Below, piece by piece: positions 1-41,886 of a DNA stretch of 42,257 nt. The notes beneath the pieces were generated by a model, which searched no databases, was not told the origin of the DNA, and was given only the letters and a program-made list of their open reading frames with translations. Made by a program: the position numbers and the translations under genes. This stretch comes from a virus: IMG/VR virus record IMGVR_UViG_3300048806_000005, positions 1-42,257 of that record, one strand, 5' to 3'. The first letter of the stretch is position 1, and the number at the start of each line of letters is the position of its first letter.

Positions 1-88
1 GTGTTAGAACCTTGCCTATTTTGCCAATAAGTTCACCGATCTTCATAGCTCCTTTACTTGTGTCAATCAATGTGTCATAGCCTAGGCA
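1..88 (-). mobile_element. Intein 2 in terminase, N-terminal end only (window edge)
   Basis: After the nuclease motif DDSYDA the frame continues CLGYDTLIDTSKGAMKIGEL, which matches intein block A: a Cys1, then GYDTLI and a later IGEL. In an uninterrupted terminase a short Leu/Arg-Tyr-Gly-like run would be expected here. Only 29 residues and one base are in the window. The rest of the intein and the terminase C-terminus lie beyond base 1, so the presence of an endonuclease domain cannot be judged. Confidence 0.8.
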
Positions 89-2257
89 GGCGTCATAGGA
101 GTCGTCTATTGGCACGACGTAGCCCTGCTCGTCTTTGTAGGTGGACTTCTTATCAATCTGCTCTAGGTCTTTCTCATCATAGGCCAGCATCGGCAGGGTC
201 TTGATGAGCTTGCGGCAATTAGAGGTGATCTGTAACCACGGTGTGCCGTCAGGGGAGTCAGCTAACATCTGGTGGGTGATGGCCTGCCTGTTGAGTCTTG
301 CTCCGGCCACTAAGGTCTTGCCCTCTCGGATCGGTATCTTGTAGCTGGCAAAAACGTCGGCTATGGTCTTATGAGAATGCCTATGAGCGAAACAGTCGTG
401 GGGTAGTACCATCCATTTAACTGATTCTTGGCTTGTCCAAGCCGAAACTATCTTCGCCCATTCGTCGGGAGTTGTTTCACGTCTAGCGATTTCCCTGTAA
501 GTAACAATGTGTCTGATGCCGTGCTCGTTGATTGGCATTAAGGCCGTCCAGGTAGCCACAGCGGGGTGGTTATAACCCCAGTCAAATGAGATGAACTTAT
601 CGGCAAGTTCTAACTGATCTTCAGTAAGTGGTGGTATGACATGCTTTTCTTGGTTAAAGGCGGCGAACACGACACCTTCGGCTACGTCCCATGAACCCAG
701 ACGCCACGCCTTGTAACGGTTCATGTCGATATCTTTGTAAGAATCAATCAGTTTTACGTAGTCAGGGTCATTCTCCATAAGGATCGGATTGTCGTCAATA
801 GTGGCCGGTATGAAGATAGCCATTCTGCCTGTAACGCCTATGAAGCGTTTACCAGGAGGTGAGGGATCTACGAACCTAGCTCTCGTCCAGGAATTACCGC
901 TTAACCATATGCTGCCATTCTGCCGTAGGAAGAACCTGTGGTTCGGCACTCCGATACAGTAAACTTTGCCTTTATAGGGTACGTTCTTGACATGTTTCTT
1001 CTCTAGCCACCCCAAACGGCCGTGTCTGAATGTCACTTCATAGGAGAGACCCTCTCTATTTGGCCGTTGCCGATTTCTGACGACGGTATCGTACCCTAAT
1101 TTCAGGCCGAGTTCTTGCATATCATCAGCTAATTGCTTAGAGGTCGTGTAATAGGTAGAGCCGTGGCCGTCCCCGTCCATTGCCGCGCGCCAGAATACAC
1201 GCAGTTGGTCGGCTGGAAGGCTCTTGAGGTTGTCTGGTATGTATTTGGCGCGGCATTTTCCAAACCTCTTGAGGTACTCGTACCAGGACGAGGAGTACAC
1301 TGTGTACCCGTTCGCGCTTGTTGAGTAAGTAAACCCGGCTCTATCTAAAAGCGCTTGGATAGTCTCTCTATGTTGTGGTTTTAACTGGGAGATATTAAAC
1401 GCCTTGTCCCTATCAACCGTGCAACCTTCCGATAGGAACCAGCCCATAAGTTCGCAGTAGTCGTTTGTCTTAAGTACCATAGGCTGCGATAGTTTAGTCT
1501 TTCTGCCCTCGATAGGCGGCACCGTGAATGTCTCTGCCGCCTCGCCCTGCCATTTAGCGGTGTGCACAGTCCTAACCACTGAAGGGATGTCTTTATATGC
1601 GATGGGAGTAGGTGGGTGGAAGGTGCGGCCAGAGCTACTCTTTGTTTCGGTCGCACGGTATATCCGGTGTTCGGGGGTGGCGATGATAGAATGGGTTCTT
1701 CGGTTATATGACATCAACTCACCATCGAAATCGTACTCGTGAGACTGCTCGACCGGCACAAAAACCAGGAAACCCTCATCATCGGTGGAGGCCACCATCT
1801 CCCCAACGCCAACCTTGGCAATGCCCTTCCACCCAGTTGTTGTCAGCACCTCCCCCTCTTGAACGCAGTGTCCTGGGCCACCTGGATTGGCGGTGCAGAA
1901 TACTTGGGCGGGGATATCGGGGTCAACAGAGCGGCAACTAGAGATAAGGTCAGTGTAGCGTTGCTCGTTGGGGATCTGAGTTAACTCCTCGATGACAATA
2001 CGATGGAACTGCTGGCCTTGGTACTTCTGGTAGGAATCATCATCTTGCAAGTGGCCTGTAACGAACTCAGCTCCTGATGGCCATCTAACCACGGCGGGGT
2101 TAGCGGTCACAGTAGCGCCCATTGGAACGTAGAGTCTTTTAGCACGGCTAATCCAGTCAGCAAGGTCATTAGCGTTCCTACGAATAACGAGAGCTTTGTA
2201 ATAGGGTTTTGAGATGTGGTCTAGTAGCCAGATAAGCCCGGCTTCGGTTTTGCCTCC
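1..2257 (-). CDS. terL: Terminase large subunit, main part (ATPase + nuclease), with inteins; runs off left edge
   Basis: This is the motor ATPase and nuclease that packages DNA into the prohead. The frame is open from the TAA at 2258-2260 to base 1. Right after the stop it reads GGKTEAGLIWLLDHI, the second half of a P-loop. Further on are the Walker B-like HRIVIEE, the coupling motif TANPGGPGH, FDWGYNHPAV (first acidic residue of the RNase H-like nuclease) and DDSYDA (C-terminal nuclease acidic motif). A complete intein (893-1867) interrupts the protein after GGPGH, and a second starts at 86-88 after DDSYDA. With the first intein removed, the junction reads GGPGH-SWTRARFVD, as in uninterrupted terminases. 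There is no good start codon just after the stop, so this part probably depends on the upstream reading frame at 2258-2704. The identification is firm; how it is expressed is not. Confidence 0.93.
893..1867 (-). mobile_element. Intein 1 in terminase, with LAGLIDADG homing endonuclease domain
   Basis: A 325-residue self-splicing element lying in frame inside terL. It starts with Cys (codon 1865-1867), CVQEGEVLTTTGWKGI, which is block A. Block B is ATPEHRIYRA with the TxxH pattern. A two-motif LAGLIDADG endonuclease follows: CELMGWFLSEG near 1415-1453 and FWRAAMDGDG near 1166-1195. Block F reads VYCIGVPNHRFFLRQNG. It ends SGN (Asn codon 893-895) and the next extein residue is Ser. The penultimate residue is Gly rather than the common His, a known tolerated variation. 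Joining the flanks restores an unbroken terminase motif. It sits at the coupling motif right after Walker B, a typical conserved intein site. Confidence 0.93.
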
Positions 2258-2272
2258 TTATCCGCCCCGCGC
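2249..2272 (-). other. In-frame TAA in the terminase P-loop flanked by matching GGA codons
   Basis: On the coding strand the codons are GGC GGA TAA GGA GGC AAA. Plain readthrough would give GGARGG-x-GGKT, which has the wrong spacing for a Walker A motif. Removing exactly six bases (GGA TAA or TAA GGA) gives GGARGGGKT, the usual phage terminase motif. The stop overlaps TAAGGAGG, a perfect Shine-Dalgarno-like octamer. What is seen is the stop, the flanking GGA pair and the exact restoration. A +6 hop, an indel error and a scar of a lost insertion are competing inferences. Confidence 0.75.
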
Positions 2273-2704
2273 ACCACCGTAGAGTATCTCGAAGGTACTG
2301 TTCGGTAGGCGCAGGGCAAACTCCTGTGGGCCGGGGTTAGGTTTCCAGATTTTTCCGCCTTTGTGAGCTGGTTGCTTTGGTTGTTGTATGGCAGACGATA
2401 TCAGTTCGTCCATATGCTTACGGTATCTAGTTACCCGCCGGGACTGGCGTCTCTTGCAATAGACTGAACAGAACTTTGAGGCACGGAAATTAGACTCATA
2501 AGGCTTAGAACATTCAATGCACTGTTTAATAGTTGGCGGCAGTTTAGTATGCAAGCGCGGATCAATAGGAAGACGGGATCTGGCGTCACTACACTCGTCA
2601 CAATAAAGTGAAAGGTGGTGGACAGGTTCAAAGACCTTGTTGCACTTTAGGCAGTTTTTGGGGCCTTTAGTGCGCTTGTATTTAACTGGGTCAACTGGTG
2701 GCAT
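2258..2704 (-). CDS. terL: Terminase large subunit, N-terminal part, ending at TAA inside the P-loop
   Basis: 148 codons, ending FEILYGGARGG and then TAA. The same frame continues with GGKTEAG, so this is the front of the terminase and not a separate gene. Residues about 18-42 and 62-85 form two zinc-ribbon-like clusters: CLKC...CDEC, and CIEC followed 13 residues later by C-x3-C and an Arg-rich stretch. These are unusual additions to a terminase and could bind DNA. The gene lies 15 nt after the recA-like stop codon, so the two are probably co-transcribed. The ribosome site is weak. The odd point is the stop within GGARGGGKT; see the separate site entry at 2249-2272. It could be recoded, a sequencing or assembly error, or a true lesion. 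Confidence 0.85.
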   Translation of the reverse strand: MPPVDPVKYKRTKGPKNCLKCNKVFEPVHHLSLYCDECSDARSRLPIDPRLHTKLPPTIKQCIECSKPYESNFRASKFCSVYCKRRQSRRVTRYRKHMDELISSAIQQPKQPAHKGGKIWKPNPGPQEFALRLPNSTFEILYGGARGG

Positions 2705-9873: not shown

Positions 9874-10428
9874 ATGGCTAAAGTAACAATTCAAATTAAA
9901 TCTTACTTAGGCGACGTATTGTTTGAGGCAGAAAAGGAAGATTACACCCTGCGGCAGGCAGTGCTTGACGCTATTGCCGAGGGCAAGAGTTTGAGCCGCA
10001 CCGACCTGCGCGACGCCGACCTGAGCCGCGCCAACCTGAGGGGCACCGACCTGCGCGACGCCGACCTGAGCCGCGCCAACCTGAGGGGCGCCGACCTGAG
10101 CGGTGCCGACCTGAGCCGCGCCAACCTGAGGGGCGCCGACCTGAGTCGCGCCAAGCTGAGGGGCGCCGACCTGAGCCGCGCCAACCTGAGCGGCGCCGAC
10201 CTGAGCGGTGCCGACCTGAGCGGTGCCGACCTGAGCCGCGCCGACCTGAGCGACGCCAACCTGAGCCGCGCCAACCTGAGCGGCGCCGACCTGAGCCGCG
10301 CCGACTTTTATCAGGTGAGGTTCTACGGTAGAGGTGGGAGTACCAAGATAAACAAGAACCAGTTAAATGACTTCTTGGCAGCGCTGGGGGTGGTAGTAGT
10401 CGAAGACGCTAATAAAGGGGTGAAATAA
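9874..10428 (+). CDS. Pentapeptide-repeat protein
   Basis: 184 aa with AGGAG before ATG. After a 40-residue N-terminal segment come roughly 20 consecutive A(D/N)LSR/A(D/N)LSG/A(D/N)LRG repeats (about residues 40-146), then a 38-residue C-terminal cap. Such repeats fold as a right-handed beta-helix. Some members (Qnr, MfpA) mimic DNA and protect or inhibit gyrase; whether this one does cannot be told. The repeats are nearly identical at DNA level, so copy number is likely to vary. It overlaps the next ATG by one base. Confidence 0.85.
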
Positions 10429-14429: not shown

Positions 14430-14469
14430 GATATACTATAGACATTAGCATAAATTGGAAGGACATAAC

Positions 14470-14760
14470 ATGGCTCAACTTGTTCCCGTAGGGAATAATG
14501 TATTAGTGCAACTCTCTGACCGCTATAAGGGCGTAGCTTCTATTGAAAAGAAGTTTGACTCTCGTACTAGCGGCGTAATCGTAAGCGTAAGTGATGGCAT
14601 AGAGGACTGGTCTTATAATACCGGGGAACTATCACCTGAGAAAATGGTCGGCCATAAGATATACTTCGAGGAGTATGTAGACTCCGCCCGCGTCGAGCAT
14701 GAGGGTATGAGCTATGCCTTTATCGCATGGGATAAGATCAAGGGATACCTCGGTGAATAA
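14470..14760 (+). CDS. groES: GroES-like co-chaperonin
   Basis: 96 aa, the normal Cpn10 length, with GGAAGGA before ATG. It begins LVPVGNNVLVQLSD as GroES proteins do, has a mobile-loop region around residues 26-40 (KKFDSRTSGVIVSVSDG) with the G-[VI]-[IV] contact for GroEL, and later KIYFEEY...YAFIAWDKIKGYL. It forms the lid over GroEL. GroEL follows with an 8-base overlap. Phages often carry a GroES substitute (T4 gp31) to fold their capsid protein; having the GroEL partner too is less usual. Confidence 0.88.
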   Translation: MAQLVPVGNNVLVQLSDRYKGVASIEKKFDSRTSGVIVSVSDGIEDWSYNTGELSPEKMVGHKIYFEEYVDSARVEHEGMSYAFIAWDKIKGYLGE

Positions 14761-16291
14761 TAGGCTAATTACAAACCCCGAAGAAGTACAAGCTAAAATA
14801 CGCTCTGCCGCCCAACAAATGTACGACGTGGCCGTAGCCGCCTATGGCCCCAGCTCAGGTAATGTCTTGCTCGGCCAGGAATGGGGCGACCCCATTACCA
14901 GCCACGATGGTGTCACGAACCTATCCCAGATAGAATTAGAAGATGATTTCGAGAATGCCGTAGCCGCTGTCATTAAGCAAGCCGCCAAGAAGTGTAACGA
15001 GGTTGTTGGCGATGGGACTACTGCCAGCACGATACTTGCCTATCACCTATTACAGGAAGCGCAGAAGCGGGTAGCAGGTGGCATCAATCGGATGGTAGTA
15101 GCCCGTGAGTTGCAAGATTCCGCTTTTATAGCTCTAGAACACTTGGACAAACTATCTAAACCAGTGAATATGGACGGTGGTACTCTTCTGGCCATCGCTA
15201 CTATCTCATCTGGCAATAGTGCGGTTGGCTCTTTGGTCAGTCATGTGATTGAAGAGGTCGGCGTGGATGGTGGCACTACCATCGAGGACTCCCCCGCTCT
15301 GGGCGTGAGTTATGAAATCGTAGACGGCTTTCACTTCGCTAAAGGTCTGCCACACCTGGCCTTTGCTACTGACTACGCCAAGCTAGAGGCAGCCTATACC
15401 GCACCCGAAATACTCATTACCAATAAGAAGCTGTCCACCGCTACTGACATGGGTCTGATCCTAGAGAAATTAGTAGCTGGCGGCATAAAGGAGCTGGTTA
15501 TCATCGGTGAGGTCAAAGACGATGCTCTGGCTATGCTGGCTCTGAACAAGCATAAAGGTATTTTGACTGTCACTCCCGTTGAGCCGCCCGTATCCGCAGG
15601 TAACCGCGTCTTATTCCTGGAAGACATAGCTAAGGTAACAGGTAGCACAGTACTAGGAGAGGGCATGAGCGGAGCAGACTTTGATATCAGTATGCTCGGT
15701 AGCGCTCGGTCGGTGACCGTCACTCAGCTTGCCACCACCATTATCGGTGGCGAGGGTGACCATATCGAGGAATACATTGCTAAGGTTCAAGCACAGCTTG
15801 ATGAAGCCACTCATCCAGTAGATATCCAAGCTATCAAAGACAGGCTCTCTAAGCTCTCAGGGAAAGTAGCTATCATCCGCGTCGGCGGCGCTACTACCAC
15901 AGAGCAGAAAGAGACTCGCTTGCGTGTTGAAGATGCTGTCTGTGCGTCACAGGCCGCTCTTAAAGGCGGTGTAGTGCCTGGTGGCGGGGTGGCTCTGGCT
16001 ACGGTGAGTGGTACGAGTTTTGATAACGCTTACAAAGCGCTTCTGCGACAGTTGGTTCATAATGCTGGTCTTAACCCTGAGAAGATACTGAGCCTAGTCG
16101 AAAGCGCCCCATCGTGGCATGGGTTTGACTTATTAACAGTGGGGGATAAGCCTGTGGACATGTACGAGGCTGGGGTCATTGATCCGACCCTGGCTATCCG
16201 CGAAGTAGTTATTCGAGCTACCAGCGTAGCAGCCGACCTCATTAAGACGGCAGCCATTAAGGTAGTCGTAAAGGAGAAAGAAAATGGTTAG
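14753..16291 (+). CDS. groEL: GroEL chaperonin
   Basis: 512 aa from the GTG at 14753, which overlaps the groES stop; host GroEL is about 540. AYGPSSGNVLLG and SHDGVTNLSQIELED (equatorial domain), GDGTTAST (ATP phosphate contact), GGVVPGGGVALATV and the late Asp in AGVIDPTLAIR are all present, so ATPase residues appear intact. The apical-domain region is shorter than usual. The C-terminus (KVVVKEKENG) lacks the GGM tail. It would fold the capsid or other virion proteins with the adjacent GroES. The four small genes after it overlap in turn, forming one operon. Confidence 0.93.
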   Translation: MNNRLITNPEEVQAKIRSAAQQMYDVAVAAYGPSSGNVLLGQEWGDPITSHDGVTNLSQIELEDDFENAVAAVIKQAAKKCNEVVGDGTTASTILAYHLLQEAQKRVAGGINRMVVARELQDSAFIALEHLDKLSKPVNMDGGTLLAIATISSGNSAVGSLVSHVIEEVGVDGGTTIEDSPALGVSYEIVDGFHFAKGLPHLAFATDYAKLEAAYTAPEILITNKKLSTATDMGLILEKLVAGGIKELVIIGEVKDDALAMLALNKHKGILTVTPVEPPVSAGNRVLFLEDIAKVTGSTVLGEGMSGADFDISMLGSARSVTVTQLATTIIGGEGDHIEEYIAKVQAQLDEATHPVDIQAIKDRLSKLSGKVAIIRVGGATTTEQKETRLRVEDAVCASQAALKGGVVPGGGVALATVSGTSFDNAYKALLRQLVHNAGLNPEKILSLVESAPSWHGFDLLTVGDKPVDMYEAGVIDPTLAIREVVIRATSVAADLIKTAAIKVVVKEKENG

Positions 16292-33418: not shown

Positions 33419-33997
33419 TCACTTCTTCTTAGAAGACCAGAATCTCTCAGACCGAAGCTTAGTGACTCTCTCGGATATCTTCTTCCTAATCTCTGGGTTA
33501 GCCATATGCAATTTGGTGTGCTCACTGTTACTCAATATCTCAAGATTCTCTATTCTGTTATCACGTCTATCGCCATTGATGTGATGTACGTATTCCGACC
33601 TAGCAAGCTTCCTACCTAGATGTTGGCTCATAACATAGCGGTGTTCCTTAACATATTTACCGTTAACTCTAATAATGGCATAGCTATGCTCTTTGTCCCT
33701 ACCCGTCCAGCTCCTTCCACCCTTCCAAACGGGGCTATTCTCCCCCGTCTGGCTCTTAGCCATCTCCGACATCCTTTTTTTACCGTCCTCACCTGGAGAC
33801 CAGTGCTTCGCAGCTCGGACTTCTGATTGAGACTTCGCATGAATACCATGGCGCTTCAAGTGCCTAAAAATCGTAGTCTGGCCAACACCAAGAAGTCTGG
33901 CTACACTTAAGCCAGACTCTCCTTGGCGCACATATAACTCTTCTAACTGCTCTCTAGTGATATTGGCTATCGGTTTTCCCATATAGCCAATATACAC
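33419..33997 (-). CDS. HNH homing endonuclease with N-terminal HTH
   Basis: 192 aa from the GTG at 33997, or 187 aa from the ATG at 33982; neither has a clear ribosome site. Residues about 10-45 (QLEELYVRQGESGLSVARLL, QTTIFRHLKRHGI) form a helix-turn-helix. The HNH core reads KEHRYVMSQHLGRK...EYVHHINGDRRDNRIENLEI (about residues 115-157), the HNH_3 type found in free-standing phage homing enzymes. It sits between the capsid gene and a decoration gene, a typical landing place. A perfect 11-bp inverted repeat spans its start codons and may limit its translation. Confidence 0.88.
   Translation of the reverse strand: MYIGYMGKPIANITREQLEELYVRQGESGLSVARLLGVGQTTIFRHLKRHGIHAKSQSEVRAAKHWSPGEDGKKRMSEMAKSQTGENSPVWKGGRSWTGRDKEHSYAIIRVNGKYVKEHRYVMSQHLGRKLARSEYVHHINGDRRDNRIENLEILSNSEHTKLHMANPEIRKKISERVTKLRSERFWSSKKK
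33960..33993. repeat. 11-bp inverted repeat across the HNH start
   Basis: ATATTGGCTAT (33960-33970) and ATAGCCAATAT (33983-33993) are perfect inverted copies with a 12-base loop. In mRNA the stem would hold the ATG at 33982 in its loop and pair the bases before it. Confidence 0.65.
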
Positions 33998-34027: not shown

Positions 34028-35110
34028 CTACACCGTGCTGATCGCTTTGATAACACCATTACGTCGTGGTTGACGGTGCTTGAGCTGACCAGCTAGGAGC
34101 AGGAAGCCTAACCAACCGTATTGCTGGACTGGCATTATGAAGTCACGGAACTGGAAGGTCGAGGGGAATGGAACGTCCTTGTAGTAACCCTCAGTTACTT
34201 CAACGCTACTGGTGATGTCACGGAGTTCTACTAGCTTCAAACGATCAAACGAGATGTAATTCTCGTTCAGGAAGAAGAACAAGCCATCGGGGCACATGTC
34301 ATCTGCCGCCACCTGCAAACCACGGTAGGTAATGGCACAGAAACCAGCAAGACCTTTCAGATCGGTGTTGCCAGCTAACGAACGACCATTCGGGGTTTTA
34401 CCTGTGATGACGTTGTAGCCGCTCACATTCACCGGAGTGTACATGCTCGTAATGGTTGGGGTCAGCAAGCTTTCAAACAGAGTAAAGATCGACTTGGTAG
34501 TTAAACCGATGGTCGGGGACTCACTCTGGCTGGTAGCCGCACGAACAGCGTCATGGGTCTGTCCTAAGAGATCGAGGCTAAGAACTCCGGCAGGAGCCGC
34601 AATTAGATAACCATTAACCCAGGGGTTAGTGGCACGAGTAATACCAGCGTAAGAAGCGGTAGCCGTACCGTCATCCACGATCAGGCCAAGACCTTCAAAG
34701 TCATTGCCAAGACCAGTGCCGTAGAACTGAGTACCAATATTTACGGCGGCGGAAATACGAGCCTCATCCATCTTAGCGGAGACCAAAGAGATCGCTTGCT
34801 TCTCGGTGTCGGCGTTCACGGAACGCTCAATACCAGGAATAACAATCGACTGCTCATATGCCTTGACGTACCAAGTCATCGAACGAGTGTTATTGGTGGC
34901 GCTAGTCGGGAACACATCCATGCCAGAGAACGATCCGCCAGTAGTGGAGTTGGCGATTTGCACAGGCTGCAACTCAGCAATACCTTTCCACGGGCTTACA
35001 AAACTCTGGAGCACACGGGCAGTGAACACATTAGAGTTGTTGATTTGGTCAACCAAAGATGGAAGAATCTCCTGGTAAGTTATGTCCGTAACTCTATTGT
35101 TGAAGATCAT
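34028..35110 (-). CDS. Major capsid protein
   Basis: 360 aa, with AAAGGAAAA upstream. TARVLQSFVSPWKGIAELQP, SMTWYVKAYEQSIVIPGIER and the C-terminal PVQQYGWLGFLLLAGQLKHR followed by QPRRNGVIKAI match the pattern of a large family of HK97-fold-like capsid proteins. It has no cleavable N-terminal delta domain, so a separate scaffold (36308) fits. It forms the shell lattice, and it is the most likely client of the phage GroEL-GroES pair. A hairpin-family leader precedes it. Confidence 0.85.
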   Translation of the reverse strand: MIFNNRVTDITYQEILPSLVDQINNSNVFTARVLQSFVSPWKGIAELQPVQIANSTTGGSFSGMDVFPTSATNNTRSMTWYVKAYEQSIVIPGIERSVNADTEKQAISLVSAKMDEARISAAVNIGTQFYGTGLGNDFEGLGLIVDDGTATASYAGITRATNPWVNGYLIAAPAGVLSLDLLGQTHDAVRAATSQSESPTIGLTTKSIFTLFESLLTPTITSMYTPVNVSGYNVITGKTPNGRSLAGNTDLKGLAGFCAITYRGLQVAADDMCPDGLFFFLNENYISFDRLKLVELRDITSSVEVTEGYYKDVPFPSTFQFRDFIMPVQQYGWLGFLLLAGQLKHRQPRRNGVIKAISTV

Positions 35111-35142: not shown

Positions 35143-35170
35143 AAAAAGACCGCCCTTGGCGGGTGGCCTT
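35143..35170 (-). terminator. Hairpin family copy (before major capsid gene)
   Basis: Minus strand: GATACTTGTAATCAATAAGGCC, then ACCCGCCAAGGGCGGTC and TTTTTG, 32 bases before the capsid ATG. Confidence 0.7.
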
Positions 35171-35223: not shown

Positions 35224-36168
35224 CTAATATACAGCACCTACATTTGGCAGACCTACCCTCGGCACGACTGGGACTGCCGTAGGGGTCGGAGTGGGTGATG
35301 GCGTGTGAGTCTTGCTGGGGGTCGGAGTTTTGGTGGGGGACGGAGATGAACTTGGTGATGAGCTTACTGTCGGAGTCACGAATGCGGAAGGTGCGGAAGA
35401 CGCGGAAGGTGCGGGAGGTGCGGGAGGTGCGGGAGGTGCGGGAGATGCAGACGAGCTGGGGCTAGGACTGGGGAGAGTAGAACATACCGCTTTGTTTATA
35501 ACATTCATATCCAGAGTGACCGCCCCTGTTCTAGCCAGCACCCTGCCCTCTACGTTGGCTCCGGTGGTAACGGTAATGGACGCCTGAGCCATGATAGTGC
35601 CTTTGAAGGTTGAGTTAGTGCCAAGCGTAGCGGAACTGCCAATTTGCCAGAAGACGTTGCATGCTTGAGCGCCGTTAATGAGGCTTACAGAACTCGACGA
35701 GGCTGTGGTGAGCGAGGAGCCAGCTTGGAAAACGAATACAGAGTTTGGGTTACCCTGAGCGTCGAGAGTCAAGGTTCCGGTTAATCCAAGCGTTGAGGCG
35801 GAGTTATAGACGCCTGATACTAACGTCTGACCACCAAGGTCTGAGGTAATCGGGGAGGTCGGCCCTTGACCGGCGGCGTCATTGTAGGCGGTAGTAAGAT
35901 CATCCTGAGCATTAGACGCCACTACGTCGGTTATATGCTGTACTCCGTTAACGACACCGGGCGGGAAGCCTGTAACTGATGTACCAGGACTCAGACCCAA
36001 ATCGCCGTTAATAACGGAAGAGCCTGTATTGGTTACTGCGGCTCCGGCAAGTACAGCAAAACTATCCGCCGTACCCAGACCTACAGTGGTTGCCGCAGCT
36101 TTAACCTCGCAAGCTAGACCAATTAGCAGTACAGATACACCAATAATAGCGACCCTGTATGCTCTCAT
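35224..36168 (-). CDS. Secreted DUF3494 (ice-binding-type) protein with Pro/Ser tail
   Basis: 314 aa. N-terminal signal peptide (MRAYRVAIIGVSVLLIGLAC, cleavage probably near VKA-AA). Residues about 28-225 fit the DUF3494 beta-solenoid: LGTADSFAVLAGAAVTNTGS, VINGDLGLSPGTSVTGFPPG, LGGQTLVSGVYNSASTLGLT, NSVFVFQAGSSLTT, FWQIGSSATLGTNSTFKGTI and a final TGANVEGRVLARTGAVTLDM. The tail is Pro/Ser/Thr-rich with APP repeats and ends RVGLPNVGAVY. Family members bind ice or serve as adhesins. It lies between the scaffold group and the capsid gene, and its ATG overlaps the 47-residue gene before it. Confidence 0.88.
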   Translation of the reverse strand: MRAYRVAIIGVSVLLIGLACEVKAAATTVGLGTADSFAVLAGAAVTNTGSSVINGDLGLSPGTSVTGFPPGVVNGVQHITDVVASNAQDDLTTAYNDAAGQGPTSPITSDLGGQTLVSGVYNSASTLGLTGTLTLDAQGNPNSVFVFQAGSSLTTASSSSVSLINGAQACNVFWQIGSSATLGTNSTFKGTIMAQASITVTTGANVEGRVLARTGAVTLDMNVINKAVCSTLPSPSPSSSASPAPPAPPAPPAPSASSAPSAFVTPTVSSSPSSSPSPTKTPTPSKTHTPSPTPTPTAVPVVPRVGLPNVGAVY

Positions 36169-36308
36169 TCTAAGACAGACTTCACTTTAGCGAGCAAGTG
36201 CTCGTATTTGGTTGGAATAACGATACTGTTAAACAACAGTTCCAGTTTGGCCGCTTCCTCGGCTGTTAGCACACCTTTAACTTGTAAGATGGCAAGTGTA
36301 GGACTCAT
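36165..36308 (-). CDS. 47-residue helical protein
   Basis: ATG overlaps the scaffold gene's stop (TAATG), and its TGA overlaps the next ATG. It encodes MSPTLAILQVKGVLTAEEAA and a further helix (YEHLLAKVKSVLE). It looks like a compact two-helix protein; no family is recognised. Coupling to scaffold suggests a capsid-assembly role. Confidence 0.6.
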   Translation of the reverse strand: MSPTLAILQVKGVLTAEEAAKLELLFNSIVIPTKYEHLLAKVKSVLE

Positions 36309-37207
36309 TATGCTAGATACTTGTTTAAGATGTCGTTGATCTTCGTACCCGTGCGATAGGGAGTCCTGGGAGAGTCCGCTGAGTTACCTGTCGTACCCAC
36401 TTTACCTGCTGTTTGCTTACGCTCATTAGAGAGTGATTTGTCCACCGTAGGTTTAACGCCTTTATCCTTAATGATCTGCTTGGCCTCATAAAGGTCAAAA
36501 GCATCACTGTAGCTTATCTTGGTTCGGCGCTTTTCGTTGGTCTCATTGTAAAACTTGAGCACATCTCTAGCGAGCTTGGCATTCTCAGACGTATCCGCGT
36601 TCTTGGGGGAGAACTTCGGTAATCTGCCCTCGGCTTGGAGCCGGTCAATGTCCTCTACGATAGAGACTCGCTCAGCCTCCGTGAGTCTGGCGCTCTGGAG
36701 AGCTATCTCTTTGTCTTTGTACTGAGCCTCTAAGCGTTCAGCTAAGGTGTTCTGGGCTGCTAGTTGCTGATAGAATACGGCCGCTTCGCGGGCAGTCTTA
36801 AACTCAAAGTCAGTAGGCAGTTGTTCTGCGATCTTTACCTGAACATCACCATCCTTGCCGTGGGCTACTAAAGTGTGAAGTCCGTCCCAGATGAATGACT
36901 CTTTGGCGGGAAGGTTCTCGAAATCCAGCTCTCCAGCTTCGGTGTCGTCAGACGCTTCGGTGTCGTCAGACTCGGACTCTGTGCCGTCTTCTGACTCTTC
37001 GGTAGTCTCCTCGTCGTCTTCGGTGGCTTCCTCGTTACCTGTGGCCTCTGTGTCGGTCTGGGAGTCTTCTGCTTTTGAGTCTTCTGCTTCCACTGGGATT
37101 AGTGGGCGGATAGAGCCGTCTTGGGCGGCTATGTCTTCTGCTGTCGGAGGATTATCCACAAGGCTCTTCTCGTAGGCGGCATCAGCTACTTGTTCAATGG
37201 TTGGCAT
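36308..37207 (-). CDS. Scaffold-like protein
   Basis: 299 aa, AAAGGAC upstream. Residues about 35-95 are extremely acidic (Asp/Glu/Ser/Thr). A helical middle (KTAREAAVFYQQLAAQNTLA, ERLEAQYKDKEIALQSARLT) and a basic C-terminus (about residues 215-299) follow. An acidic-helical-basic protein just before the capsid gene is the usual picture of a phage scaffold, which guides shell assembly through its basic end. No protease was recognised. Confidence 0.7.
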   Translation of the reverse strand: MPTIEQVADAAYEKSLVDNPPTAEDIAAQDGSIRPLIPVEAEDSKAEDSQTDTEATGNEEATEDDEETTEESEDGTESESDDTEASDDTEAGELDFENLPAKESFIWDGLHTLVAHGKDGDVQVKIAEQLPTDFEFKTAREAAVFYQQLAAQNTLAERLEAQYKDKEIALQSARLTEAERVSIVEDIDRLQAEGRLPKFSPKNADTSENAKLARDVLKFYNETNEKRRTKISYSDAFDLYEAKQIIKDKGVKPTVDKSLSNERKQTAGKVGTTGNSADSPRTPYRTGTKINDILNKYLA

Positions 37208-39054: not shown

Positions 39055-39582
39055 TTAGTAGTGATACTTAGATTTATATTCTTGGTAGGCAATAGAGGCC
39101 TGCTCAGGGGTGGCATAAGTGCCTATATGTAGTTTTACCCCGTTACTTTGTATACGGGCAGCCCAACCCGTCTTTTGGTTTGCATATGTGACTCCTTTGT
39201 AACCCGACACCCCAGCAGGCCTCTCTCTTTGGTTAATAGCCTGAGTATTTCTATCCGCCCACCTACAGTTACACGGCTCGTAATCGCCATTATTATCGAT
39301 ACGATCTAATGAATAGTTGTTCGCTGGTTTTGGCCCCATATCCTCGTAGAAATTAGAAAAACTCCTAGCCCACCTGTCGCATACTTTTATCCCTCTTCCC
39401 CCATAGTCTTTCCACTGTTTTCTATTAGGGTTGAGACAACGGGTTTTCATAGCCTGCCAACTACCGTATTCAGAGATGTGTGGCTGGCGTGATCTCAAAT
39501 CTGCTCTATAGTGTGAAGGGCAGTAGAGTTTGTAGACTCTAACCCGTTCACAACCGTCTATGCTACACTGTTTGTAAGCCAT
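39055..39582 (-). CDS. Homing endonuclease, HNH-like with AP2 DNA-binding domain
   Basis: 175 aa. N-terminal [20 protein letters not shown] is a small zinc-binding motif. Residues about 39-118, with [32 protein letters not shown] and [17 protein letters not shown], match a widespread phage HNH-like nuclease family. The last 50 residues ([37 protein letters not shown]) are an AP2 DNA-binding domain. A free-standing selfish gene inserted behind the small zinc-ribbon gene. Confidence 0.88.
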
Positions 39583-39768: not shown

Positions 39769-41886
39769 CTACATTGTGGGCATTGCGCCGGGTCTATTCA
39801 AGTTGCCAATAGCCTCTGGATTGGTCGGAGTAGCTATCCCAGGAGCACCAGCCAGAGCGGATAGTCCTTGCGCTCCTTGCCCGCCCTGAGCGAATGGTGA
39901 GTTAGATGGAGCCTGAGTCGGCATAGCACCGCCACCTACCTGTGATTGCTGGCCTTGTGGAGCGCCTGGAGCGCCTGTAGGCGGCATCATAGGCATAGGT
40001 GGCGCAGTTATCGACTGCACATCCATAGCCATCGTAGAGAGCAGCTGTGTGCGTCTGGCAAGGCTCTGCTTCTCGGCATCTATGTGAGCCAGCAGTGCTT
40101 GACGAGCCATCGGATCAGACATAAGGAACTTATCAGACACAAGTTGCTTAGAGTGAGCCAGTAAGTGTTCTGCCTCCACGTCGTCACGGGGCTTGGTGTC
40201 TTTACCGGCCATAATATCAATAAAGTCCACGGTAGCATCACGGTCAGCATCATAGTCTTGGTGCTGGCTTGTCATAGCACTTGGATTGAGTTTGAACTTT
40301 AGCCAGTTGTCGAAGCGCTCATGCGGGTCATCCAGACCAAGATCACTGTATAGGTCATATGGGCTGATAAGACCAAGTTGAGCAAGTTGCAAGGCTACAG
40401 CCTGGGCACGCTGTTTGTCGTGAGGCAAGAAACTACCACTGCGTACTGATACCTTAGCTCCAGACTCAATCTTGTCCGAGGTCATCTCGATGTTATCGAA
40501 CGTACCGTTAGCGGAGCTGTGGGTGAAGTAGTGCGGGTCATCATAGTAGACCTTCATCATCTGAGCCAGGTATTTGTAATACGTGTCCATAGCCCTATCG
40601 ATACAGCGTACTATGGCGTCTTGGCGCATCTGAGCTTGATTACGTTGCATAAGGTCTTGGCCAAGTGTAGCCTGACTGCCACTACTCGTTCCTGTAAACT
40701 GCGTAGGAGTACCAAGCATAGCGTGGACAGTATTGCTCATGTCACGCTTGTCTTCCAGCACGAAGCTAGGTAGAAAGTGCGGTGGAACATTGATCATAGC
40801 CTTAGAAACGTCACTACCTGCCACTACAATCTTTTGATTAGGATCACCAGTGAGATTCTCGGCGTCTTCCATCGTAAAGTAGTCGCCCGCAAACACCTGG
40901 ACACCGTTAGCAGTATCGGCGTTCTCCATGATCTGTCGGCCACGCTTATTGAGTACTTGTTGCAGATTGGCAGCTTGTTCTACGGGTGTAGTCTGATCTA
41001 TCCAGTGCGAACCGTCATTGATGAAGTTAATCGGCACAAACGGTTTTATTGGGTACGGCAAGATGTTGGATTGTGGCTTCTCATAGAGATAATTCGGATT
41101 CTTCTTCTTATCGAGAATAAGGTCACCGAAATACCACATAACGGCCTCTCCGGGCTTATTGTCTTGGTAATAGGTGAACCAGACCTCCCGATACACAACA
41201 ATATCGCCTAAATGACTGGTTTCTCCGTTTTCTCCGTCTCTGACGTCTCTGATACGAAGTTGATCGTAGATTTCTTTCTTCTTGGAAGGGAACTTTGAGA
41301 CAAGTTCTGATACCGAGGCTTTTAAGATATGGCAAATAAACTCAGGATTCTCGCCTAATGGAGCGTTCTTGTCGATGATTACATGCGCCGGATCAATTCT
41401 TAGAGGGACAATATCACCATTCGGGCCATAATTTTCGTCCCAAACGAACTTTATTAGGCCAATCCGCTTCAAAAGTAAGTCACGGGTGGTGCATTCCATC
41501 TTTTTATCGAGATTATGCTCGTTAGAGTGGCACTCAAACACCTTTTCGAGGTCACAAGCAAGCGTTCTGGACTCTATATCATCATATCGGGCGGGAGACA
41601 CGTCCGCTTGGGCTGGTTTTGCCGATACGTAGGCCACAATTGACTCTACGCCTACGAAAATCTGGTTATCTACATAAGGGATCTGGTGCTGGTAGAGTCT
41701 AGACTCCTCGATATGGCGACCAAGGTGCATTCTAACATTTTCAATACGATGCTGATAAAGGTTATGGCCTTGCGGGTCGTCCCAGTAGTTCTTGGAGTTC
41801 TCAACCCGGCGGTGAACTGACTCTAAAAGCTCCCTGTCGTCTAGCGATAGGTCTAGCGTAGGTAAAATATCAACAACACCGTCCAT
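39769..41886 (-). CDS. Portal protein
   Basis: 705 aa. The dodecameric portal is the DNA gate at one capsid vertex and docks TerL and the adaptor. RRVENSKNYWDDPQGHNLYQ and YVDNQIFVGVESIVAYVSAK mark the N-terminal domain. NFINDGSHWIDQTTPVEQAA and NLQQVLNKRGRQIMENADTA belong to the crown and wing, and GSQATLGQDLMQRNQAQMRQ to the stem region. The C-terminus is Pro/Gln/Gly-rich. The start is uncertain: the frame stays open upstream to about 41970 without a standard start, encoding coding-like sequence, while the best ribosome site (GAGGAGG, 41949-41955) is followed by an out-of-frame ATG. Confidence 0.9.
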   Translation of the reverse strand: MDGVVDILPTLDLSLDDRELLESVHRRVENSKNYWDDPQGHNLYQHRIENVRMHLGRHIEESRLYQHQIPYVDNQIFVGVESIVAYVSAKPAQADVSPARYDDIESRTLACDLEKVFECHSNEHNLDKKMECTTRDLLLKRIGLIKFVWDENYGPNGDIVPLRIDPAHVIIDKNAPLGENPEFICHILKASVSELVSKFPSKKKEIYDQLRIRDVRDGENGETSHLGDIVVYREVWFTYYQDNKPGEAVMWYFGDLILDKKKNPNYLYEKPQSNILPYPIKPFVPINFINDGSHWIDQTTPVEQAANLQQVLNKRGRQIMENADTANGVQVFAGDYFTMEDAENLTGDPNQKIVVAGSDVSKAMINVPPHFLPSFVLEDKRDMSNTVHAMLGTPTQFTGTSSGSQATLGQDLMQRNQAQMRQDAIVRCIDRAMDTYYKYLAQMMKVYYDDPHYFTHSSANGTFDNIEMTSDKIESGAKVSVRSGSFLPHDKQRAQAVALQLAQLGLISPYDLYSDLGLDDPHERFDNWLKFKLNPSAMTSQHQDYDADRDATVDFIDIMAGKDTKPRDDVEAEHLLAHSKQLVSDKFLMSDPMARQALLAHIDAEKQSLARRTQLLSTMAMDVQSITAPPMPMMPPTGAPGAPQGQQSQVGGGAMPTQAPSNSPFAQGGQGAQGLSALAGAPGIATPTNPEAIGNLNRPGAMPTM

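What the first reader, a model, noticed from the sequence alone, without database searches (positions are those of the whole stretch)
35224..36168. Secreted DUF3494 ice-binding-type protein between scaffold and capsid genes
The beta-solenoid motifs of DUF3494 are clear, with a signal peptide and a repeat-rich Pro/Ser tail. DUF3494 proteins are known from cold-adapted microbes and also as adhesion or surface modules. In a phage it could alter the host surface, help host attachment to ice or particles, or, if the signal is not used, decorate the capsid. Its position inside the head operon makes the second option worth testing.
Basis: partly seen in the sequence, partly recalled or inferred. Interest (0 to 1): 0.65.

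Follow-up and report, generated by a model that had tools for sequence, protein, structure and literature searches.

The report
Captured secreted ice-binding-type protein in phage
A phage related to viruses of the tiny bacterium Saccharibacteria carries, next to its capsid gene, a complete bacterial-type exported ice-binding-fold protein that its relatives lack; it looks like a host gene picked up as cargo and made late in infection, not a part of the virus particle, and whether it binds ice is untested.

Summary
Window 35224-36168 (-) encodes 314 aa: a Sec-type signal peptide, a full-length DUF3494/PF11999 domain (E 1.7e-68) and a Pro/Ser/Thr tail. AlphaFold gives the DUF3494 solenoid (closest solved structure 6eio, rmsd 0.8 A). 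It lies between the scaffold-like gene (plus a 47-aa ORF) and the major capsid gene.

The capsid-decoration idea is disfavoured. The domain belongs with exported proteins of Patescibacteria and Actinomycetota (up to 72% identity). It keeps their cysteine pair (C170, C229), has no start codon that would skip the signal, and follows the 47-aa ORF with an ATGA overlap. None of 31 related phage records carries the domain, and six close relatives show the same slot empty. A leader hairpin conserved before the capsid gene was left intact. Phages that seem to use DUF3494 in virions form a separate clade, without signal peptide or cysteines.

Best reading: a host-derived cargo gene, co-expressed with head genes and exported from the infected cell. 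Unlike Patescibacteria homologues it lacks the LPxTG-plus-membrane anchor, so it should be released. Head genes match a TM7 phage, so the host is probably Saccharibacteria or another Patescibacteria. Ice binding is plausible but not decidable from sequence.

The parts
35224..36168 (-). secreted DUF3494 (ice-binding-fold) protein gene, 314 aa
   Evidence: PF11999 E 1.7e-68, full profile; AlphaFold solenoid, domain pLDDT 93-98; Foldseek 6eio E 2.6e-21, rmsd 0.8; dN/dS 0.05-0.09 against bacterial homologues, dS near saturation
36094..36168 (-). signal peptide (residues 1 to about 25)
   Evidence: charged n-region, 14-17 residue hydrophobic core, A-x-A c-region read from sequence; hydropathy 2.5-2.8; no ATG/GTG/TTG in codons 2-56
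35494..36054 (-). DUF3494 / PF11999 domain (residues 39-225), includes C170
35227..35478 (-). Pro/Ser/Thr-rich tail ending ...RVGLPNVGAVY, no membrane segment
   Evidence: sequence; maximum tail hydropathy 1.08; 12 of 15 Patescibacteria-group homologues have LPxTG-like motif plus TM
36165..36308 (-). 47-aa ORF, last gene before DUF3494, ATGA overlap with its start
   Evidence: weak similarity to small ORFs in the same position in relatives (11 of 1000 shuffles as high for L140)
36308..37207 (-). scaffold-like acidic protein
   Evidence: homologues at 28-32% identity between portal and MCP in L133, L134, L137, L140, L159, L163
35150..35162 (-). terminator-like leader hairpin plus U-run, 39 nt before MCP start
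   Evidence: same kind of element before MCP in 18 of 26 group members, 0.4 expected from shuffles
34028..35110 (-). major capsid protein
   Evidence: phrog_9953 E 4.9e-54; 54% identical to TM7 phage DolZOral124_53_65
33419..33997 (-). HNH endonuclease gene directly after MCP (possible mobility factor)
   Evidence: PF13392 E 2e-11
39055..39582 (-). HNH-like gene between portal and scaffold; homologue sits in the scaffold-MCP slot in L136/L138
39769..41886 (-). portal protein
   Evidence: phrog_156 E 9.5e-18; 42% to TM7 phage

Best explanation
A bacterial gene for an exported DUF3494 protein was captured by a Saccharibacteria/Patescibacteria-type tailed phage and inserted as cargo (a 'moron') at the 3' end of the portal-scaffold transcription unit, just upstream of the capsid gene's own leader. 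Shown: the domain, its predicted fold, its bacterial exported-type ancestry, its absence from relatives, the intact flanks and ATGA overlap, and the lack of a membrane anchor. Inferred: it is translated together with the late head genes, exported by the host Sec machinery, stabilised outside the cytoplasm by a C170-C229 disulfide, and released to the cell exterior because the LPxTG-plus-membrane anchor of the Patescibacteria homologues is missing. There it most likely acts as those homologues do, binding a surface, with ice (recrystallisation inhibition around the infected or lysing cell) the leading but untested ligand.
For: PF11999 full-length match; solenoid model and 31 PDB matches at E <= 0.001, all DUF3494 ice-binding structures, best 6eio. 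Tree: groups with bacterial exported proteins (100* split) and away from 26 virion-type viral copies; 72% to L051, 70% to Doudnabacteria. Cysteines C170/C229 conserved in 80/80 and 79/80 bacterial homologues, 1/41 viral. No alternative start past the signal. Absent from 31 relative records, although the same search finds it in the window and in 38 of 380 Patescibacteria genomes. Same portal-scaffold-MCP order without insertion in L133, L134, L137, L140, L159, L163. Conserved MCP leader hairpin intact. dN/dS 0.05-0.09. Host: MCP 54%, portal 42%, terminase 33% and GroES-GroEL shared with a TM7 phage.
Against: No activity of any kind is shown. Export rests on sequence features, since no dedicated signal-peptide predictor was available. 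The donor lineage is unresolved: the window row has no starred clade inside the bacterial group. Late co-expression is inferred from gene order. The C170 statistic is inflated because one search peptide contained that cysteine; C229 and the HMM-found Patescibacteria set (22/30; 13/13 where aligned) are not affected. No prophage carrying the MCP was found in 380 Patescibacteria genomes, so the host is indirect.
Confidence: 0.7

Rival explanations
1. Virion protein: the DUF3494 domain decorates the capsid or neck; the hydrophobic N-terminus is a membrane or capsid tether rather than an export signal.
For: It lies next to the MCP gene. Other phages encode DUF3494 domains in proteins near their capsid genes (L012: three genes after a phrog_9953 capsid gene; L007: two genes after a phrog_1357 capsid gene), often fused to other domains.
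Against: Those copies form a separate clade and lack signal peptide and cysteine pair. The window protein has the full exported-type anatomy and is absent from all 31 relatives searched.
Confidence: 0.12
2. Exported cargo with a non-ice function: a surface or adhesive protein that changes attachment of the infected cell (for example to its actinobacterial partner), masks receptors, or acts as a soluble decoy against superinfection.
For: DUF3494 proteins are described as ice-binding and substrate-binding and occur in rock and other non-icy habitats, many from Actinomycetota (PMC12337378). The closest homologues include Streptomyces, Nocardiopsis and Conexibacter, not specifically cold taxa. The Pro/Ser/Thr tail is typical of cell-surface linkers.
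Against: No anchor motif survives, which weakens a role on the cell's own surface. All solved structures close to the model are ice-binding proteins, although that partly reflects what has been studied.
Confidence: 0.35
3. Passenger or artefact: a chimeric assembly, or a recently acquired and decaying gene fragment without function in the phage.
For: The C-terminal anchor is missing. Overall GC is 0.546 against a genome mean of 0.488. Only this record in its group carries the gene.
Against: ATGA overlap with the upstream ORF and intact MCP leader on the other side; GC3 of 0.479 is within the range of the phage genes; no internal stop and dN/dS 0.05-0.09. Several Actinomycetota homologues also end without a membrane segment.
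Confidence: 0.1

Closest known systems
Single-domain bacterial DUF3494 ice-binding proteins, e.g. 6eio (ice-binding protein from an Antarctic biological consortium)
   Same: One DUF3494 solenoid; 50% identity over 209 columns, rmsd 0.8 A
   Different: Phage-encoded, long Pro/Ser/Thr tail, activity untested
LPxTG-type surface DUF3494 proteins of Patescibacteria (Doudnabacteria L057/L067, Uhrbacteria L066, Magasanikbacteria L059/L082)
   Same: Signal peptide, domain at 63-70% identity, conserved cysteine pair, low-complexity linker
   Different: They end in LPxTG-like motif, membrane segment and basic residues; the phage copy stops at LPNVGAVY
Virion-type DUF3494 domains of uncultured phages (L006-L042)
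   Same: PF11999 domain in tailed-phage genomes, in two cases near the capsid gene
   Different: Different clade, no signal peptide, no cysteine pair, usually part of larger proteins
TM7 phage DolZOral124_53_65 (MG269973)
   Same: Same capsid, portal, terminase, scaffold, GroES and GroEL families
   Different: Different gene order around the MCP and no DUF3494
DUF3494 proteins of the giant virus Hyperionvirus
   Same: Virus-encoded DUF3494 fold, best 42% identity
   Different: Eukaryotic giant virus; no relation of the viruses

Membership tests
DUF3494 / PF11999 ice-binding-like family | Profile match above the curated cut-off over the whole domain | tested here: met
   230.8 bits against 28.7; positions 1-208/208
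DUF3494 / PF11999 ice-binding-like family | Discontinuous beta-solenoid braced by one long alpha-helix | tested here: met
   Model with helix 82-99 between strand blocks; Foldseek top 31 hits all DUF3494 structures
Functional ice-binding protein | Thermal hysteresis, ice shaping or recrystallisation inhibition | not testable with these tools
   Needs an assay; no consensus ice-binding-site motif exists (PMC7966756)
Exported bacterial-type DUF3494 protein | N-terminal signal peptide that cannot be skipped | tested here: met
   Hydropathy 2.8; no start codon in codons 2-56; cleavage not shown
Exported bacterial-type DUF3494 protein | Conserved cysteine pair C170/C229 | tested here: met
   80/80 and 79/80 bacterial, 1/41 viral; disulfide itself not shown
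Sortase-anchored surface protein | LPxTG-like motif followed by membrane segment and basic tail | tested here: not met
   Ends LPNVGAVY; no tail segment above 1.08 hydropathy
Phage virion-type DUF3494 protein | Belongs to the viral clade, no signal peptide, part of a larger virion protein | tested here: not met
   Placed outside the 26-member viral clade; signal peptide and cysteines present
TM7/Saccharibacteria phage group | Homologous MCP, portal, terminase and chaperonin genes | tested here: met
   54%, 42%, 33%, 34% identity

The most novel reading that the evidence does not exclude
A phage of ultra-small Patescibacteria deploys a released, host-derived ice-binding protein late in infection as an auxiliary gene, protecting the infected cell, its lysate or its progeny virions from freezing or recrystallisation damage: a cryoprotective auxiliary gene, a kind not found in the phage literature searched here.
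Probability: 0.3. Interest if true: 0.72.

Novelty: new member of a known kind. Interest (0 to 1): 0.45.

Why it matters
Ice-binding genes are known to spread by horizontal transfer among bacteria, algae and fungi, but the vehicles are unknown. A tailed phage carrying a complete exported-type copy is a concrete candidate vehicle, and it may show that phages of cold or freeze-thaw habitats carry cryoprotective cargo. The library search found no paper holding both 'DUF3494' and 'phage', and the annotated phage collection had no match. The survey also separates two phage uses of the fold: rare exported cargo, and a larger virion-type clade.

Tried and rejected
Capsid decoration was considered seriously and rejected as first choice on clade, cysteines, signal peptide and absence from relatives. 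A start that would skip the signal: no ATG/GTG/TTG in codons 2-56. Resolving the donor: a careful tree of 73 rows leaves the window unresolved among Patescibacteria and Actinomycetota. Finding the host through prophages: MCP profile against 380 Patescibacteria genomes, no match. Annotated phage genomes: no DUF3494 match. Ice-binding-site reading: not attempted further because the family has no consensus motif. Other exported-type copies on viral contigs: a second scan with a bacterial-type alignment gave one likely case, L195, with signal peptide and intact C-terminal membrane segment in a 17-kb contig; the rest lack a clear signal. Rfam over the window: nothing.

Full report
What is there. 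The ORF at 35224-36168 (-) encodes 314 aa with an ATG start. PF11999 (DUF3494, ice-binding-like) matches residues 39-225 over the whole profile, E 1.7e-68; a chance origin is excluded. The first 25 residues read as a Sec-type signal peptide (MRAYR-VAIIGVSVLLIGLACEV-KAAA), with N-terminal hydropathy of 2.8 against at most 1.7 in the viral DUF3494 proteins examined. After C229 comes a Pro/Ser/Thr-rich tail ending RVGLPNVGAVY. AlphaFold on a 32-row alignment gives mean pLDDT 84 (93-98 across the domain), a beta-solenoid with one long helix at 82-99. All 31 Foldseek matches in the PDB at E <= 0.001 are DUF3494 proteins, best 6eio with rmsd 0.8 A. Comparison with bacterial homologues gives dN/dS of 0.05-0.09, with dS near saturation.

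Surroundings. The window is a 42,257-bp IMG/VR record. Reading the minus strand: portal (39769-41886), an HNH-like gene, scaffold-like protein (36308-37207), a 47-aa ORF (36165-36308), DUF3494, major capsid protein (34028-35110, phrog_9953), an HNH gene (33419-33997), then further structural genes. The 47-aa ORF overlaps the DUF3494 start codon as ATGA. Between DUF3494 and the MCP is a terminator-like hairpin with a U-run, 39 nt before the MCP start.

Which phage. The MCP is 54% identical over its full length to TM7 phage DolZOral124_53_65, the portal 42%, the terminase 33%, and the GroES-GroEL pair is shared. This points to Saccharibacteria or another Patescibacteria as host (inference; the host of the reference phage is as written in its record). 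No MCP match was found in 380 Patescibacteria genomes.

The gene is an insertion. Scanning viral contigs with an MCP alignment gave 32 relatives. In L133, L134, L137, L140, L159 and L163 the order portal-scaffold-MCP is kept, with only 106-415 bp between scaffold and MCP and no DUF3494; in L136 and L138 an HNH gene occupies the slot. PF11999 is absent from all 31 records searched, whereas the same search finds it in the window and in 38 of 380 Patescibacteria genomes. Eighteen of 26 group members have a terminator-like hairpin before the MCP (most 35-46 nt, some 15 nt or over 100 nt away), against 0.4 expected in shuffles; near-copies inflate the count. In the window this leader is intact, so the gene went in just upstream of it. 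A weak similarity of the 47-aa ORF to small ORFs at the same place in relatives (11 of 1000 shuffles as high for L140, 33 for L133) suggests that the gene entered between this ORF and the MCP leader.

Where it came from. The closest homologues are exported proteins of Actinomycetota and Patescibacteria at about 60-72% identity. In a 111-row tree the window row falls with all bacterial exported proteins, separated by a fully supported branch from 26 viral rows. A careful 73-row tree does not resolve it further. Two cysteines, C170 and C229, are conserved in 80/80 and 79/80 bacterial homologues and in 1 of 41 viral ones. One of the search peptides contained C170, which biases that count; C229 is not biased, and the independently found Patescibacteria set has 22/30 and 13/13 where aligned. 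Paired cysteines suit a protein folded outside the cytoplasm. Codons 2-56 hold no ATG, GTG or TTG, so no usual start would give a version without the signal.

What is different in the phage copy. Thirteen of 15 homologues from the Patescibacteria group end in an LPxTG-like motif, and 12 also have a membrane segment. The phage copy ends at LPNVGAVY with no membrane segment. If exported it should be released rather than anchored (inference). Several Actinomycetota homologues also end without a membrane segment, so the end need not mean decay.

How it probably works. Shown: domain, predicted fold, exported-type ancestry, insertion, ATGA overlap, missing anchor. Inferred: late co-expression with head genes, Sec export, disulfide formation, release. 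Function outside the cell is uncertain. Ice is the leading ligand because all solved near relatives are ice-binding proteins, but papers note that the family has no conserved ice-binding-site motif (PMC7966756) and that members are described as ice-binding and substrate-binding across non-icy habitats too (PMC12337378). I put an ice-related function at roughly one half or slightly below.

The capsid idea. It is not baseless: many uncultured phages carry DUF3494 in proteins without signal peptides, sometimes near their capsid genes (L012, L007). But those form a separate clade without signal peptide or cysteine pair, and the window protein has none of their features. A second scan aimed at bacterial-type copies found one other likely exported form, L195, with an intact membrane segment, so phage-borne exported copies may be rare rather than unique.

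Literature. No held paper contains both 'DUF3494' and 'phage'; papers combining ice-binding proteins and viral contigs mention them only for bacteria or in references. The annotated phage collection has no match. In the viral structure library only the giant virus Hyperionvirus has the fold.

Verdict. Observation confirmed, interpretation partly supported. A new member of a known protein family in an unexpected carrier; moderate interest, higher if ice activity and export are shown.

Noticed in passing
L006-L042 (e.g. L012:5713-6702, L019:6028-7107, L007:5875-7080, L010:3433-9684): A distinct clade of DUF3494 domains in phage proteins without signal peptide or cysteine pair, fused to other domains and in two cases 2-3 genes after the capsid gene; the four full-length proteins of this clade tested match no PHROG. 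Looks like a virion use of the ice-binding fold.
   Followed up: partly
L198:4688-6155: The gene before a DUF3494 gene and the C-terminal part of the DUF3494 protein share one domain (FPDITGK.I.AWG...Y.TGG), as if DUF3494 had been fused to a duplicated virion protein.
   Followed up: no
window 2258-2260 and 2-2704 (-): The terminase large subunit ORF is interrupted by an in-frame TAA inside its Walker A motif (GGARGG*GGKT); the same frame continues afterwards. Sequencing error, recoding or true break not resolved.
   Followed up: partly
window 2-2122 (-): The terminase holds an apparent intein with a LAGLIDADG_3 match, and a second intein-like start (CLGYDTLIDTSKGAMKIGELIG) runs off the contig end.
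   Followed up: no
window 14455-16291 (+): Phage-encoded GroES and GroEL genes, conserved across this TM7-phage-like group, often on the strand opposite to the MCP.
   Followed up: partly
window 35150-35162 (-) and the 180 nt before MCP in L133-L162: A terminator-like hairpin with U-run, mostly 35-46 nt before the capsid start codon, in 18 of 26 group members against 0.4 expected; possible attenuator or mRNA-end element for the capsid gene.
   Followed up: partly
L195:1773-3293: A second exported-type DUF3494 on a viral contig, with signal peptide and intact C-terminal membrane segment; phage or host flank not settled.
   Followed up: partly
window 9874-10428 (+): A run of pentapeptide-type repeats (A(D/N)L(S/R)x) in a 184-aa protein, seen by eye in the ORF list.
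   Followed up: no
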